DNA from: a virus
Direction: 5' to 3' (one strand)
IMG/VR virus record: IMGVR_UViG_3300023179_009086
Coordinates: 1-64,000 of that record
Length of the DNA: 64,000 bases
A program made the position numbers and the translations under genes. This document shows positions 1 to 4,734 of the stretch, piece after piece. The notes below the pieces were generated by a model, which saw only the letters and a program-made list of their open reading frames with translations, made no database searches and had not been told where the DNA came from. Within the stretch, counting starts at the first letter, position 1. The number at the start of each line of letters is the position of its first letter.

Positions 1-511
1 CTGCTTGATTAACTTTTTCTTTAAATTCTGGAGAATTATTGTATTTATTCTGAATGGAAGGAAACTTTCTTAGAGTAACTAGAGCTTCTTCAATAGGATG
101 AATTATTTCTTCAGGTTTCTTTTTATCCTCAATATATCTTAGGTAGAGCCAGGAGAGATAATCTTCGTTTAAGTTGGAAAGATCAATCTCAGCATATTTC
201 TCTTTAATTTTTTCAGATAATTCTTCAATTTTAGTTTTAGGCTTAGATTCAGTAGCTTCTTGAATTAATTTTTTTAATTCTTCAAAAGTAGGAGGTAGAG
301 GTGGATTTAAGTTTCCTTCTTCTAAAGTAGTATTTGGATCACTAGTTTTAATAAACTTGTTGTAGTACTGTACAGCTAGACCTGCAGCGGCTCTTTCACC
401 TGGATACTTGGAGATAAAGATAGTTCTTAAGGCATCCAAGTCTTTAGATTTGGTGGCAGCTAACTTAGTTAACAGATTGGAAAAATATAATTGTCTTTCA
501 GATTTTAACAT
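1..511 (-). CDS. Hypothetical protein, 3' end outside window (partial)
   Basis: An open frame runs without a stop from an ATG at 511 to the left edge, giving the first 170 residues of a protein that continues outside the window. The start is supported by a GGAG six bases upstream of the ATG. The visible part is charged and probably helical. It contains a segment with TIFISKYPGERAAAGLAV near the N-terminus and then long Lys/Glu-rich helices. I recognise no catalytic motif and no family. The gene follows the ribonucleotide reductase alpha gene, where a beta subunit (NrdB) could be expected, but no di-iron ligand motif is visible and I do not call it NrdB. Function unknown. Confidence 0.75.
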   Translation of the reverse strand, partial: MLKSERQLYFSNLLTKLAATKSKDLDALRTIFISKYPGERAAAGLAVQYYNKFIKTSDPNTTLEEGNLNPPLPPTFEELKKLIQEATESKPKTKIEELSEKIKEKYAEIDLSNLNEDYLSWLYLRYIEDKKKPEEIIHPIEEALVTLRKFPSIQNKYNNSPEFKEKVNQA

Positions 512-606: not shown

Positions 607-1512
607 TTATCCTTCGCAGGCCAGGCATTCTGATCCATCTGCTAGTTGTTTTAGATCAATCTCTTCAATTATATTTCTTTCTATTTTTTGAGAAACTTTG
701 TCTGCTTTAATAATTTTTTCCGATCTGCAGTAATAAAGAGTTTTTAAACCTTTCTTCCATGCAGTAAAGTGTACCGCATGAAGATATTTAATTCCGGTAT
801 CGGGCTTGAAAAATACATTGACTGACTGCCCCTGATCAATGAACTGCTGTCTATCTGCCGCATGATCAATTACCCATCTTTGGTCAATTTCGATTGCTGT
901 CTTAAATACAGATTTTGTCCAATCATCAAAAATATCTAAACTTTGAATAGAGCCGCCACTTGAAATAATACTTGACCAAATATCTTGATAATCAAGTTTT
1001 GAGCTCTTAGAACACATATCTTTTATTATTTGATCTAGATACCTATTTTTATTCATATACGAACCTGACAGCGTATCCTGTCTGTAACAATTTGCTTTAA
1101 ACGGTTCTATAGAAGGCGAGGTATTTCCTAGAATAATTGAGGATGAGTTATGTGTCACCACCCCATTTTCAAGAACATAATCATGTGTCGTTGGAACTTC
1201 AATATCAAAAGTTGGCATAATTTCGCCTGTCGCCATCACAGATTCGACATACCAGCCATTTGTAAGCTCCATTCCTGAAATGAGCTCAACCACCTTAACC
1301 CAATCATGCTCTTTGGTTAGAAACTTATGATTTGCCGTACATCTTATAGAGAAGACGGACTCTCCCTTAATCATTATTAAATCAAGAACTTCCACATATC
1401 CGTTGAAATAAAATTTATTTACATCAGCAATCCCTTCCGATGTTTTTATAGAAATATTATTATCAGACTCAAACCATTGCGGCTGCTTCATCTTCACATT
1501 TTTAACTTTCAT
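607..1512 (-). CDS. nrdA: Ribonucleotide reductase class I alpha, C-terminal part, fused to C-terminal half of a split intein
   Basis: Residues 1-122 look like the C-terminal part of an intein, ending in NGVVTHN followed by Ser123, the +1 nucleophile. Residues 123-301 are the C-terminal end of class I ribonucleotide reductase. This part has the conserved SSSIILGNTSPSIEP segment, the Tyr-Tyr radical-transfer pair at 260-261 (KTLYYC) and a C-terminal Cys pair (CLACEG, C296/C299) of the kind that re-reduces the active site. The ORF is in the same phase as the upstream nrdA part. Between them lie 27 bases with two in-frame TAA codons and an AGGA nine bases before the ATG, so it should be translated separately. 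The natural reading is trans-splicing to the upstream half, giving an alpha subunit of about 597 residues without an ATP cone. A pseudogene split by nonsense mutation is the alternative, but the ribosome binding site and intact splice residues argue against it. Confidence 0.9.
   Translation of the reverse strand: MKVKNVKMKQPQWFESDNNISIKTSEGIADVNKFYFNGYVEVLDLIMIKGESVFSIRCTANHKFLTKEHDWVKVVELISGMELTNGWYVESVMATGEIMPTFDIEVPTTHDYVLENGVVTHNSSSIILGNTSPSIEPFKANCYRQDTLSGSYMNKNRYLDQIIKDMCSKSSKLDYQDIWSSIISSGGSIQSLDIFDDWTKSVFKTAIEIDQRWVIDHAADRQQFIDQGQSVNVFFKPDTGIKYLHAVHFTAWKKGLKTLYYCRSEKIIKADKVSQKIERNIIEEIDLKQLADGSECLACEG
1147..1512 (-). mobile_element. C-terminal half of split intein 3 in nrdA
   Basis: The first 122 residues of the downstream nrdA ORF carry intein blocks B (CTANHKFLT, T59/H62), F (TFDIEVPTTHDYVLENG) and G (VVTHN, H121-N122), followed by Ser123. 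Block B is unusual in a C-fragment: in classically split inteins such as DnaE it lies in the N-fragment. The fragment also starts with a stretch resembling the post-block-A strands of an intein (NNISIKTSEGIADVN). This is the layout of atypically split inteins such as AceL-TerL, whose N-part is only about 25 residues. No endonuclease domain is visible. Confidence 0.85.
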
Positions 1513-1536
1513 TGTTTATTTCCTAGTATTTTGCGT

Positions 1537-1776
1537 TTAATTTATTAATATAATTTCGTCATTTTCCATTAACTCTGATGCAATAATGGATATTTCTGAG
1601 CCATCCCTACTTACCTTTAGGCTTTGACCAATATGAATTTCTTTGGATGTGCCATCATCGAAGTCAACAGTAAGATACTCGAATGATTTCATGTCGACAC
1701 CAAGCTTGGCGCCTATATCGTCAAATGATATTGATTCTCCATCACTAGAAATAATCTTTGTATCAGAAGTTACGCA
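1537..1776 (-). mobile_element. N-terminal half of split intein 3 in nrdA
   Basis: From C987 (IAPNA/CVTSDTKI) to the stop codon the ORF encodes 79 intein-like residues. The first 26 or so match the short N-part of AceL-type split inteins in layout (Cys, then DTKI, then an acidic S-F-D-D-I helix). The remaining 53 include VDFDDGTS and an ASELMENDEIIL end. They look like a second, degenerate copy of the block-B region, because the T-x-x-H motif is replaced by IHIGQS. The C-fragment supplies its own TANH block B, so the two halves overlap in content. Confidence 0.8.
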
Positions 1777-4734
1777 AGCATTTGGCGCAATCGCAAGGAT
1801 GTGACTAAATCTTTTTCCTGTTCCAACGGCATCGGGAGCTTCACCCCTTTCCTTTCCAAGCTCAAGGTCGGCAATATCTAATAAACCCCTAATTTGTTTA
1901 AACATTCTAATATTGGTTGATTTTGCCAAAGCACTTTCAAAAGGAATTCCTTTTTGCTGCAAATAAGCATGAAACCCAAGCGCCCCAATTCCTATAGACC
2001 TCTCTCTCATGGCGGAGAATTTAGCCCTTGATATTGACTCTGGAGCATTTTCAATAAAGTAAGTTAAAACATTGTCAAGCATTTCTGCAACATCTTTTAA
2101 GAAAAGAGGATCATCTTTCCACTGATCATATGTCTCTAGATTTAACGATGAAAGACAGCAAACCGCTGTTCTCTCATCTGATGTGGGAAGAATTATCTCC
2201 GAACAATTGTGTGTGATGACGCCATTACATACCCAGAGATGCTGGTCTGTATGAACTCCCACACAATAAACATCCTGTTTTCCCGCTGGTTCTATTTTTG
2301 TAATTTTTGAAGATTTTTCTGAATTATTTTCAAATTTATCGTTTGCAACATAAGGTGAGCCGACTATATGATTAATCTTGTAAATACTTGAATATTCGGA
2401 GATACAAACTGAGTTTGTATCGTCATCAATGTTTGATGTTACTCCAAGATTCGAAAGAATAAGTTGAAGGCTTGCAGCATCTTCTTTGAATGAGCAAATA
2501 CTTATTTTTGATACAAAGATATGCTTGTCAAAATCTATGGATGTAGATGATGACAAAATGATCTTGCTTATGTAAGAAATATGTGTTTGTTTATCTGAAT
2601 TCCAAAGCCAATTTGGAATCATCATGTTTTCTATTGAATGATTTTCTGAAAAGTACTCTCTTACTTTTTCTATATTATTCTGCGTTCCAAATACGCCCTC
2701 ATGTGACTGAATAAATATATCATCTCCGATGTTCAATTCTGAAAGTGCAATCGCTTCAACTTTTCCGTTCTTCTTTGCCAGAATCTTATGATACCCAGTG
2801 ACAGTATGAGTCATGCCATTGTCGAGAGTAACTTTGAATGTCTCTGCATTTCTCTCAATTAGATTCATCTTCGTGGACTTTACAGGGCCATCATTTGATG
2901 CAAGAATAAGATCCTCTCCAAGATCATAAAGCTCTTTTGCAGTCAACATTCCAAAATTAGTTGGGACTCTCTGATCTCCTGAGACGCAGAGATTACTCTG
3001 TCGAACTTGTAGGCCTTTACTTTTTAGAAAATCTGGGAGAAAGCGATTTGATGTATCGATAAAGTGAATGTATGGCTCTCCTGTCTGCATTCTCAGCTCT
3101 AAAATCTTTTGCCACAATTCTTTCGCAGACACAACCTCCTTCACCTGACCGGTGTGTGGCTCTTTTAGTTCCCATGAGTCATCAACATTAGGATCTATCA
3201 TAGATCTCTCAATAATCTTCATAAAACTATCAGATATATTTATTCCATGGTGGAGATTTAGACATCTCATGTTTTGATCGCCTGTTGGCTTTCTCATTTC
3301 AAGAAATATAGGAACGTCAGGATGAGAAATATCCAGATAAGCGGCGTAAGATCCTCTCCGTGTATTTCCGCAAACAATTGGCGTTTCTCCCGCTCTAACT
3401 ACAATCTTTCCGGTCCGGACCACACAACAATGGACCATTCCTTCATACTGAATATGTTCTTTTCTTAACTTTTCAAGAAGGAAGTAATTCTTACTCCCAA
3501 CAAAAACTGTATACATATCTTGCCTTGGCTTGTCTCTTTTTCTATGAAAGATTCTGCTCTGTCGGCCAGCAATTACAGAAAGCGCCTGAACAATCGATGC
3601 GTTTTCTTTTATAGTGCTAAAGTAAATAAAACTATGCTGCCTGTTTCTTGTTGCATCCCATTCCGCAATTTCTTCAAGCATGGCGGAGGCATCCTCTTGG
3701 GTAATTCTTGACAAATCAATCCAAGAGAGACTCTTTAGCCCATCAAAATTCATACCTTTAGCATAAACGCTAACAGTGCCGTCTAAATTGTTAGCCTGCC
3801 ATGTTTCCAAATCTAGATTTGATAGAATTTCTGTTATTCTTGAAATCTTTCTTTCTTTTTTTAGATGGAATTCACATACGCCGTCCGCCCTAATATGAGC
3901 ATCTGCCTGTATTGCAATTTTCAGGCGAGTAAGTGCATCTAGTTTGGATTGTGATCTAGACTTCTTTGCTGCGTTCCAGAACCTAACTTCATTATGAAAC
4001 TTCAATTCTGATGCACGAACCTTCTCTAGTTTTTTTGACCAGCCAGATTTAACTTTTCTCTCAACAACCATAGAGTGATCTTCCGTTACTGAAATTTCTA
4101 TTCCTCTAGTTTTGTTATAGAATTTGATTATATTCCCATTATATTTTTCAGATACTATTTCTAGTGGTTTTTCAAAACAGATTCCTCCATCATCATCGAT
4201 CACTGCAACATCGTCATTTTTAGTCAGTAGCTCCATAGGCTTCCAGCCTGAAGATGTCAGTATTTCTGTTCCGGGAACATAGCAATTCCCTTGTTTGAAA
4301 GCCAGGGATGAAGCATCATAAATCTTTAGGTGTGGCATAACACCAGTAGATTTGTCACCAGCCGACCTAATCCCAAAACCCAAACCAACGCCGCCGCCAA
4401 GCATTGATAACCAGTTTGTCTCAGAAAGAGTGTCTACCAGACCCTTGGCTGTATCAGGAATCCATGATAGAAAACAACTAATTGGTAAACCATACTTAGT
4501 TCTACCAAAGGACAGAATTGGGGTGGAATAGCTCAACCAATGCTTGCTAGCATAATCATAGAGTCTCTGGGCATGATCTTGATTTGAGGAGAATTGCTTT
4601 GAAACAAAAGCAAACCTCTGCTGTGGTGAGGTTTCTTCATCTCTCATGTATGATTCTTTTAACCTTTTTAGGCCTAACTCATCAAATAAAGAGTCTCTAC
4701 TATAATCTACATTAATTCCAAGATAACTAGACAT
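1537..4734 (-). CDS. nrdA: Ribonucleotide reductase class I alpha, N-terminal part, with two internal inteins and N-terminal half of a split intein
   Basis: This is the large subunit of ribonucleotide reductase, making dNTPs for phage replication. Extein segments are residues 1-150, 458-582 and 844-986. Active-site equivalents are visible. C87 (LPISCFLS) matches E. coli C225, N581 with C844 and E846 (SNL/CSE across intein 2) matches N437/C439/E441, and C859/C860 (AVCCLSSLN) match C462. There is no N-terminal ATP-cone, as in many short phage and NrdE-like enzymes. Intein 1 covers residues 151-457, intein 2 covers 583-843, and the N-part of a third runs from C987 to the stop at 1065. The ATG at 4734 has GGAG seven bases upstream. 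GC content here is visibly higher than in the glycan region. No beta subunit lies in the window. The ORF cannot give an active enzyme without three splicing events, one of them in trans. Confidence 0.95.
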   Translation of the reverse strand: MSSYLGINVDYSRDSLFDELGLKRLKESYMRDEETSPQQRFAFVSKQFSSNQDHAQRLYDYASKHWLSYSTPILSFGRTKYGLPISCFLSWIPDTAKGLVDTLSETNWLSMLGGGVGLGFGIRSAGDKSTGVMPHLKIYDASSLAFKQGNCYVPGTEILTSSGWKPMELLTKNDDVAVIDDDGGICFEKPLEIVSEKYNGNIIKFYNKTRGIEISVTEDHSMVVERKVKSGWSKKLEKVRASELKFHNEVRFWNAAKKSRSQSKLDALTRLKIAIQADAHIRADGVCEFHLKKERKISRITEILSNLDLETWQANNLDGTVSVYAKGMNFDGLKSLSWIDLSRITQEDASAMLEEIAEWDATRNRQHSFIYFSTIKENASIVQALSVIAGRQSRIFHRKRDKPRQDMYTVFVGSKNYFLLEKLRKEHIQYEGMVHCCVVRTGKIVVRAGETPIVCGNTRRGSYAAYLDISHPDVPIFLEMRKPTGDQNMRCLNLHHGINISDSFMKIIERSMIDPNVDDSWELKEPHTGQVKEVVSAKELWQKILELRMQTGEPYIHFIDTSNRFLPDFLKSKGLQVRQSNLCVSGDQRVPTNFGMLTAKELYDLGEDLILASNDGPVKSTKMNLIERNAETFKVTLDNGMTHTVTGYHKILAKKNGKVEAIALSELNIGDDIFIQSHEGVFGTQNNIEKVREYFSENHSIENMMIPNWLWNSDKQTHISYISKIILSSSTSIDFDKHIFVSKISICSFKEDAASLQLILSNLGVTSNIDDDTNSVCISEYSSIYKINHIVGSPYVANDKFENNSEKSSKITKIEPAGKQDVYCVGVHTDQHLWVCNGVITHNCSEIILPTSDERTAVCCLSSLNLETYDQWKDDPLFLKDVAEMLDNVLTYFIENAPESISRAKFSAMRERSIGIGALGFHAYLQQKGIPFESALAKSTNIRMFKQIRGLLDIADLELGKERGEAPDAVGTGKRFSHILAIAPNACVTSDTKIISSDGESISFDDIGAKLGVDMKSFEYLTVDFDDGTSKEIHIGQSLKVSRDGSEISIIASELMENDEIILIN
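2206..2988 (-). mobile_element. Intein 2 of nrdA (261 aa), inserted directly before the thiyl-radical cysteine
   Basis: The intein runs from C583 (CVSGDQRVPT) to N843 (NGVITHN), with Cys844 as +1 nucleophile. That cysteine is also the catalytic thiyl-radical residue (E. coli C439 equivalent, SNL/CSEI). The block-B area around residues 640-650 reads TVTGYHKIL (T645/H649). The central part, about residues 690-800, resembles a degenerate LAGLIDADG endonuclease: an SFKEDAASLQLILSNLGV segment is seen, but clear catalytic acidic motifs are not. The +1 Cys and the terminal His-Asn indicate splicing competence. Confidence 0.9.
3364..4284 (-). mobile_element. Intein 1 of nrdA (307 aa, with likely LAGLIDADG-type endonuclease region)
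   Basis: The intein runs from C151 (block A, CYVPGTEILT) to N457, with Thr458 as +1 residue (VCGN/TRRGS). Block B is SVTEDH (T217, H220). The C-terminal block reads VVRTGKIVVRAGETPIVCGN, with Gly instead of the usual penultimate His, a known variant. Residues of about 262-430 have the look of a DOD homing endonuclease, with A-x-x-A-D-A-H-x-x-A-D-G-like and F-x-L-K-K-x-R-K-I-x-R-I segments, but the LAGLIDADG helices are not textbook, so endonuclease activity is uncertain. The junction regenerates the extein reading FKQGN-TRRGSYAAY. Confidence 0.9.

What the first reader, a model, noticed from the sequence alone, without database searches (positions are those of the whole stretch)
1147..1776. 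Split intein 3 has an unusual break and apparently redundant block-B segments
The N-part has 79 residues and the C-part 122, more than the 130-150 of a mini-intein. The C-part alone carries block B (TANH), blocks F and G, and strands that normally follow block A. This matches the early-split AceL-TerL type. Yet the N-part continues for about 53 residues into what looks like a second, decayed block-B segment lacking T-x-x-H. It may be an intermediate in the evolution of a split intein, or an N-part with an added tail that shapes fragment association.
Basis: partly seen in the sequence, partly recalled or inferred. Interest (0 to 1): 0.75.

Follow-up and report, generated by a model that had tools for sequence, protein, structure and literature searches.

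The report
Overlapping split intein in phage reductase
A phage enzyme gene is cut in two by a self-splicing protein whose halves overlap: both carry the same folding segment, one copy working and one disabled but still preserved by selection, which looks like a natural halfway stage in moving the break point of a split intein.

Summary
NrdA intein 3 is split into a 79-residue N-part and a 122-residue C-part, both with block-B-like segments. A second virus (L001) has the same architecture, with a gene of the endonuclease kind between the halves. At the corresponding NrdA site other phages carry contiguous inteins (Campylobacter phages) or canonically split ones (CP21, WX1, Klebsiella KP13-7/phiKp_21, L048, L049), several with a related gene in between. 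A profile of that family alone reads the window N-part as positions 1-32 followed directly by 69-112: a canonical N-part with about 36 residues deleted inside, not an early-split N-part with a foreign tail. The C-part reads 31-109 plus blocks F and G. Block B is thus encoded twice; the N copy lost T-x-x-H (H-x-G-Q in both viruses). That copy is not decaying: 25/44 residues identical at saturated synonymous divergence. Best reading: splicing uses N 1-33 plus C 9-122 (AceL/GOS-TerL-like break). The acidic tail and basic C-part lead are a retained canonical interface, probably used for capture, and the whole is a natural halfway state between canonical and early split sites. Architecture is well supported; the tail's function and the direction of evolution are inferred.

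The parts
1540..1776 (-). N-part of NrdA intein 3 (79 residues), at the end of the N-terminal NrdA ORF 1537-4734
   Evidence: family profile positions 1-32 and 69-112
1678..1776 (-). N-part residues 1-33: Cys1, block A and first helix; the part that contributes to the splicing core
   Evidence: profile 1-32; helices 18-24 and 29-33 in the model
1540..1677 (-). N-part residues 34-79: acidic (net -7), catalytically disabled second copy of the block-B hairpin, ending where canonical N-parts end
1624..1635 (-). residues 48-51 H-I-G-Q at the place of T-x-x-H (H-L-G-Q in L001)
   Evidence: alignments
1537..1539 (-). TAA stop of the N-part ORF
1516..1518 (-). second in-frame TAA between the two parts
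1519..1524 (-). AGGAAA, likely ribosome-binding site of the C-part ORF (TAGGAA also present in L001)
   Evidence: sequence; consensus resemblance only
1147..1512 (-). C-part of NrdA intein 3 (122 residues), at the start of ORF 607-1512
1489..1512 (-). C-part residues 1-8, basic lead MKVKNVKM, like the first strand of canonical C-parts
   Evidence: strand 87-95 of the readthrough model
1147..1488 (-). C-part residues 9-122: strands after the helix, working block B, blocks F and G
   Evidence: profile 31-109 at residues 6-83
1327..1338 (-). C-part residues 59-62 T-A-N-H, the working block-B motif
1147..1218 (-). C-part residues 99-122, blocks F and G (HDYVLENG-VVTHN)
607..1146 (-). C-extein of NrdA, first residue Ser (+1)
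   Evidence: (Ribonuc_red_lgC E 2e-29)
1777..4734 (-). N-extein of NrdA, itself holding inteins 1 and 2

Best explanation
This is a naturally split class-1-type intein in a phage class I ribonucleotide reductase large subunit, whose two halves overlap. The N-part holds block A plus the first helix (residues 1-33), then, after an internal deletion of about 36 residues, the block-B hairpin of a canonical N-part with T-x-x-H lost. The C-part starts with a canonical-like basic lead strand, then carries its own copy of the deleted strands, a working block B and blocks F and G. Shown by sequence: the architecture, its presence in two viruses and selection on the tail. Inferred: the splicing core is N 1-33 plus C 9-122, so the functional break is the early one (after helix 1). 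Inferred: the N tail (34-79, net -7) pairs with the C-part lead (+4) as a leftover of the canonical interface, helping the two large chains find and hold each other. Inferred history: an intein canonically split by an inserted homing-endonuclease gene acquired, by recombination, a C-part reaching further upstream. The overlapping segment became redundant, the N-part lost the strands now supplied by the C-part and its catalytic motif, and in the window lineage the endonuclease gene was also lost.
For: Same architecture in L001 (N-part 55%, C-part 74%, C-extein 80% identical). Family profile without window and L001: N-part = positions 1-32 then 69-112; C-part = 31-109; tail 23.5 and 20.0 bits against 0 of 2000 shuffles for each tail. 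Gapped alignment with one deletion and a common C-terminal end. Related inteins: contiguous in PC14, NCTC12673, CP220, IBB_35, CPt10, CC_R7, CP20; canonically split in CP21, WX1, L048, L049, KP13-7, phiKp_21. The gene between the L001 halves is related to the genes between the halves in CP21 (E 4e-18), WX1 (3e-17) and KP13-7 (2e-8). Selection on the tail: 25/44 residues identical, pS 0.77, pN 0.25, codon-position differences 14/6/27; neutral simulation mean 2.5/44, maximum 9/44 of 5000 runs, 87% with a stop. Charges: tail -7 in both viruses, canonical N-part block-B segments -6 to -7, own C-part block B -1, C lead +4. AlphaFold2 with 15 rows: mean pLDDT 92.7, pTM 0.82, tail forms strands; Hint structures Z 16-17. 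[quoted passage not shown] canonical halves are captured by opposite charges (PMC11923092).
Against: No splicing or binding was tested. The tail alone is a generic block-B match: block-B segments of window intein 2 (21.2 bits) and a Salicola phage intein (28.6) score like it (22.7), so descent from the same-site family rests on position, shared end and the intervening gene. In a six-frame search of all loci the tail domain reached only E 1.6 (window) and 0.53 (L001). A tree of whole inteins was unresolved. The first AlphaFold2 run with 3 rows failed (pLDDT 35); in the second the relatives' block B was aligned to the C-part copy, which favours the early-break core, and no coordinates or contacts could be inspected. 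The order of events is not shown. Only two viruses carry this architecture.
Confidence: 0.6

Rival explanations
1. Early-split (AceL/GOS-TerL-like) intein whose N-part tail is a functionless relic that has not yet been lost.
For: The tail lacks T-x-x-H; GOS-TerL has an N-part of 37 residues that can be cut to 27 (PMC11766414, passages).
Against: Protein-level conservation across two viruses at saturated synonymous divergence; near-constant length, charge and H-x-G-Q.
Confidence: 0.15
2. Domain-swapped assembly: the N tail supplies the structural block-B hairpin and the C-part supplies the missing strands, with the C-part block B outside the core.
For: The tail is closer to the family block-B profile (22.7, 20.1 bits) than the C-part's own copy (13.5, 8.1).
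Against: The tail lacks both T and H, which the C-part keeps; 123-132 of about 140 residues of solved inteins align to the model across 1..210 at about 2 A, which fits N 1-33 plus the C-part run in order.
Confidence: 0.12
3. The tail came from another intein (for example intein 2 of the same gene) carried in with the endonuclease gene, making the N-part a chimera rather than a deleted canonical N-part.
For: Block B of intein 2 resembles the tail (Smith-Waterman z 3.0 and 5.2; 21.2 bits against the family profile).
Against: Best pairwise partners are inteins of the same site (CP21 z 6.6 and 7.6; KP13-7 z 9.3 for the window tail but 1.7 for the L001 tail); the tail starts and ends at family profile positions 69-112.
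Confidence: 0.2
4. A dead or dying intein and gene; the halves no longer splice.
For: NrdA of related Campylobacter phages has been described as degenerating (PMC3653736, passages).
Against: Splice-junction residues and block B intact; C-extein 143/179 identical between the two viruses with pN 0.11 at pS 0.76.
Confidence: 0.05

Closest known systems
AceL-TerL and GOS-TerL (atypically split inteins, break after helix 1, S2)
   Same: Break after the first helix; the C-part carries block B, F and G.
   Different: Their N-parts are 25 and 37 residues and natural atypical N-parts are given as 15-35 (PMC11766414, PMC13014065, passages); here 79, with a disabled second block B. Their sequences were not compared here.
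VidaL (atypically split, S1)
   Same: Best solved-structure match of the C-part (6vgv, E 3e-4).
   Different: VidaL breaks after strand 2; N-part 16 residues (PMC13014065, passages).
NrdA inteins at the corresponding site in Campylobacter and Klebsiella phages (CP220, PC14; CP21, WX1, KP13-7)
   Same: Same gene and corresponding site, about 25-33% identity of the rows compared with the window parts; related gene between the halves in CP21, WX1 and KP13-7.
   Different: Contiguous, or split at the canonical endonuclease position without overlap.
Fractured genes: canonical split inteins with a free-standing endonuclease gene between the halves (Dassa et al. 2009; content recalled, the paper seen only in reference lists; text not held)
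   Same: L001 has this kind of arrangement.
   Different: The overlap of the two halves; the window has lost or never had the gene.

Membership tests
Class 1 split intein | Cys1, T-x-x-H in block B, penultimate His and terminal Asn, Ser/Thr/Cys +1, on two separate polypeptides (features recalled) | tested here: met
   C1, T59-H62, H121-N122, Ser +1; two in-frame stops between the parts
Class 1 split intein | trans-splicing activity | not testable with these tools
   needs an assay
Atypical S2 split (AceL/GOS-TerL type) | break after the first helix, C-part holding block B, F and G | tested here: met
   profile coordinates and model helices 18-24, 29-33
Atypical S2 split (AceL/GOS-TerL type) | short N-part (15-35 residues; 37 in GOS-TerL) | tested here: not met
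   79 residues in the window, 78 in L001; size range from PMC13014065 and PMC11766414
Canonical (S0) split intein | N-part carries blocks A and B, C-part only F and G (about 35-50 residues) | tested here: not met
   N-part lacks positions 33-68 and T-x-x-H; C-part is 122 residues with its own block B
Fractured-gene arrangement with endonuclease gene between the halves | endonuclease gene between N- and C-part genes | tested here: inconclusive
   absent in the window (24 bases between stop and ATG); in L001 an ORF related to the CP21/WX1 genes, its C-terminal part in PHROG 22677 of unknown function and only weakly (E 0.028) an endonuclease family; nuclease activity not tested

The most novel reading that the evidence does not exclude
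Natural hand-over intermediate: a split intein caught while its working break moves from the canonical endonuclease position to the early position, with overlapping halves, and with the former canonical interface (acidic N tail, basic C lead) kept and reused as a separate capture clasp after losing its catalytic residues.
Probability: 0.4. Interest if true: 0.78.

Novelty: new variant of a known kind. Interest (0 to 1): 0.62.

Why it matters
How inteins come to be split at non-canonical places is open: a direct jump would need one mutation to create two matching, active halves. An overlapping pair removes that problem, because both breaks can work while one copy is relaxed. [quoted passage not shown] If the tail is a capture module, atypical split inteins, whose halves rely more on hydrophobic contacts (PMC11923092, passages), could be given faster or tighter pairing by adding such a clasp.

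Tried and rejected
Single damaged stop codon: rejected, two in-frame stops and a ribosome-binding-like site. Assembly artefact: rejected, same architecture in an independent record. Recent duplication of the C-part's own block B: disfavoured, tail against own C-part Smith-Waterman z -1.4 (window) and 0.2 (L001). More carriers: searches of IMG/VR with the N-part alignment, the C-part and the C-part alignment found only L001's contig; of 21 NrdA loci found with the C-extein alignment, one is L001's contig (L004) and the other 20 (L005-L024) have no intein at this site; a DNA pattern for IAPNACV gave 36 loci, none an NrdA intein; two genome-contig scans found no relative. AlphaFold2 with 3 rows failed. 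Whole-intein tree: long branches, unresolved, not used. Literature searches whose listings showed no overlapping or redundant natural split intein; passages read. Of the 137 phage records matched by the C-part at E up to 10, 8 loci were opened; later searches led to 5 more loci.

Full report
Setting. The window is part of a 76,606-base unnamed virus record. On the minus strand lies a class I ribonucleotide reductase large subunit (Pfam and NCBIfam) with three inteins; the third is split. Its N-part (1776..1540, 79 residues) ends the ORF 1537-4734, its C-part (1512..1147, 122 residues) starts the ORF 607-1512. Twenty-four bases lie between stop and start; a second in-frame TAA lies among them and AGGAAA precedes the ATG.

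A second virus has the same thing. The only relative in IMG/VR found with the C-part or with the alignments of either part is one contig (L001). Its NrdA has an N-part of 78 residues (55% identical, one gap only, next to the end), a C-part of 122 (74%) and a C-extein 80% identical. Between the halves it has an ORF of 445 residues that overlaps the C-part start. The 20 other NrdA loci found with the C-extein have no intein at this site.

The relatives explain the anatomy. tblastn of the C-part against 50,697 phage records gave Campylobacter phages as the best matches, E down to 8e-12, in NrdA. At the corresponding place (just upstream of the S-x-I-E-P region; in Firehammervirus phages the flank differs by about one residue, so identity of the site there is by alignment) PC14 and NCTC12673 carry a contiguous 153-residue intein and CP220, IBB_35, CPt10, CC_R7 and CP20 a contiguous 146-residue one. 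CP21 and WX1 carry the same intein split at the canonical endonuclease position with an ORF between. Klebsiella jumbo phages KP13-7 and phiKp_21 and two IMG/VR contigs (L048, L049) carry canonically split relatives, KP13-7, phiKp_21 and L048 with an ORF between. The L001 ORF is related to those of CP21 (E 4e-18), WX1 (3e-17) and KP13-7 (2e-8); these are comparisons against one or two sequences, so E is relative to tiny databases. Against all phage records it found only CP21 (two records) and WX1 at E up to 1e-5. It was not related to the L048 ORF (E 0.22).

What the N-part is. Aligned in seven rows, both N-parts show one internal gap of about 35 columns and end where canonical N-parts end. A profile built from PC14, CP220, CP21, L048 and L049 only, without window and L001, matches the window N-part at positions 1-32 (5.1 bits) and 69-112 (21.8 bits), and the C-part at 31-109 (40.0 bits). 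The tail alone scores 23.5 bits (window) and 20.0 (L001); 0 of 2000 shuffles of each reach this (best 8.4 and 6.2). So positions 69-112 are encoded twice, and 33-68 only in the C-part. The T-x-x-H of the N copy reads H-x-G-Q in both viruses. Limits: block-B segments of other inteins score alike (Salicola phage 28.6, window intein 2 21.2, window tail 22.7), and leaving out the Firehammervirus rows and WX1 lowers the tail scores to 15.2 and 12.7. In a search of 11,909 six-frame segments the tail domain reached only E 1.6 (window) and 0.53 (L001). Pairwise, the tails fit CP21 best among twelve targets (z 6.6 and 7.6), and the window tail fits KP13-7 at z 9.3 but the L001 tail only at 1.7.

The tail is kept by selection. 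Between window and L001 synonymous sites are saturated (pS 0.77 in the tail, 0.76 in the C-extein), yet 25 of 44 tail residues are identical (pN 0.25), and differences by codon position are 14, 6 and 27. A neutral simulation at the same divergence kept 2.5 of 44 on average, at most 9 in 5000 runs, and 87% gained a stop. N core residues 1-32 are no better kept (18/32).

How it most likely works. The catalytic residues are in N 1-33 and in the C-part, so the core should be N 1-33 plus C 9-122. AlphaFold2 on the readthrough fusion with 3 rows failed (pLDDT 35). With 15 rows it gave pLDDT 92.7 and pTM 0.82, with the tail as strands 34-39, 44-48, 52-57, 60-65, 74-77 and a strand 87-95 over the C-part lead. 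VIA-align finds complete inteins at Z 16-17, for example NrdJ-1 with 130 residues at 2.0 A and VidaL with 128 at 2.0 A, spanning model residues 1..210. Foldseek's own alignments had large rmsd, mostly 13-18 A. In the input alignment the relatives' block B sits on the C-part copy, MAFFT's choice, which favours this core; in another alignment MAFFT placed the L001 tail on the C-part block B as well. No contacts could be read. Charges suggest the role of the tail: net -7 in both viruses, like canonical N-part block-B segments (-6 to -7; contiguous CP220 -7, contiguous PC14 -2), while the C-part's own block B is -1 and its first nine residues are +4. The lead outscores 621 of 621 (window) and 620 of 621 (L001) other ORF starts in the loci when compared with three canonical C-part starts (a test chosen after seeing the likeness). 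In canonical split inteins opposite charges of the second N lobe and the C-part drive capture, and atypical ones rely more on hydrophobic contacts (PMC11923092, passages). I infer that this intein keeps the canonical capture pair beside an early-split core. [quoted passage not shown]

History (inferred). The split relatives at this site are all canonical, most with an ORF between the halves, and L001 keeps a related ORF directly after the N-part. A recombination giving a C-part that starts further upstream, then deletion inside the N-part and loss of its T-x-x-H, explains all features; the window would have lost the ORF. The reverse order is not excluded. A whole-intein tree was unresolved.

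Against known kinds. Natural atypical N-parts are given as 15-35 residues, with breaks after strand 2 (VidaL, PolB16) or helix 1 (AceL, GOS-TerL) (PMC13014065, passages); GOS-TerL has 37 (PMC11766414, passages). The window intein shares the break but not the N-part, and is neither a plain S2 nor a plain S0 split. I found no report of overlapping natural halves (open-licence papers only; the 2009 fractured-genes paper was not held).

Noticed in passing
window 2245-2994: Intein 2 of the window NrdA is absent from L001, whose NrdA is uninterrupted there, while intein 1 is present in both.
   Followed up: partly
L001 4618-4690: Strong RNA hairpin (-24.9 kcal/mol, z -5.3) between the N-part stop and the start of the intervening gene; it may control that gene's translation. 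There is no room for it in the window.
   Followed up: partly
L034 2760-4241, also L033, L039 and L086: In CPt10 and relatives nrdA is also cut upstream by what looks like the C-part of another canonical split intein (VYDIEVKDNHNFFANGLCVHN); the CPt10 record calls the gene a pseudogene and PMC3653736 calls it degenerating, but a split intein would explain the break.
   Followed up: partly
L031 2847-4229 (GU296433.1): The 3' NrdA ORF with intein is not annotated in Campylobacter phage NCTC12673, though annotated in PC14.
   Followed up: no
L035 3680-4498 against L086 2776-3894: The gene between the intein halves is intact in WX1 (372 residues) and ends early in CP21 (272) with the rest in other frames.
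   Followed up: no
L037 3192-5162 (Salicola phage SCTP-2): One protein carries two inteins, the first a contiguous relative of VidaL.
   Followed up: no
window 3357-4284: Intein 1 appears to end in V-C-G-N, without the usual penultimate His.
   Followed up: no
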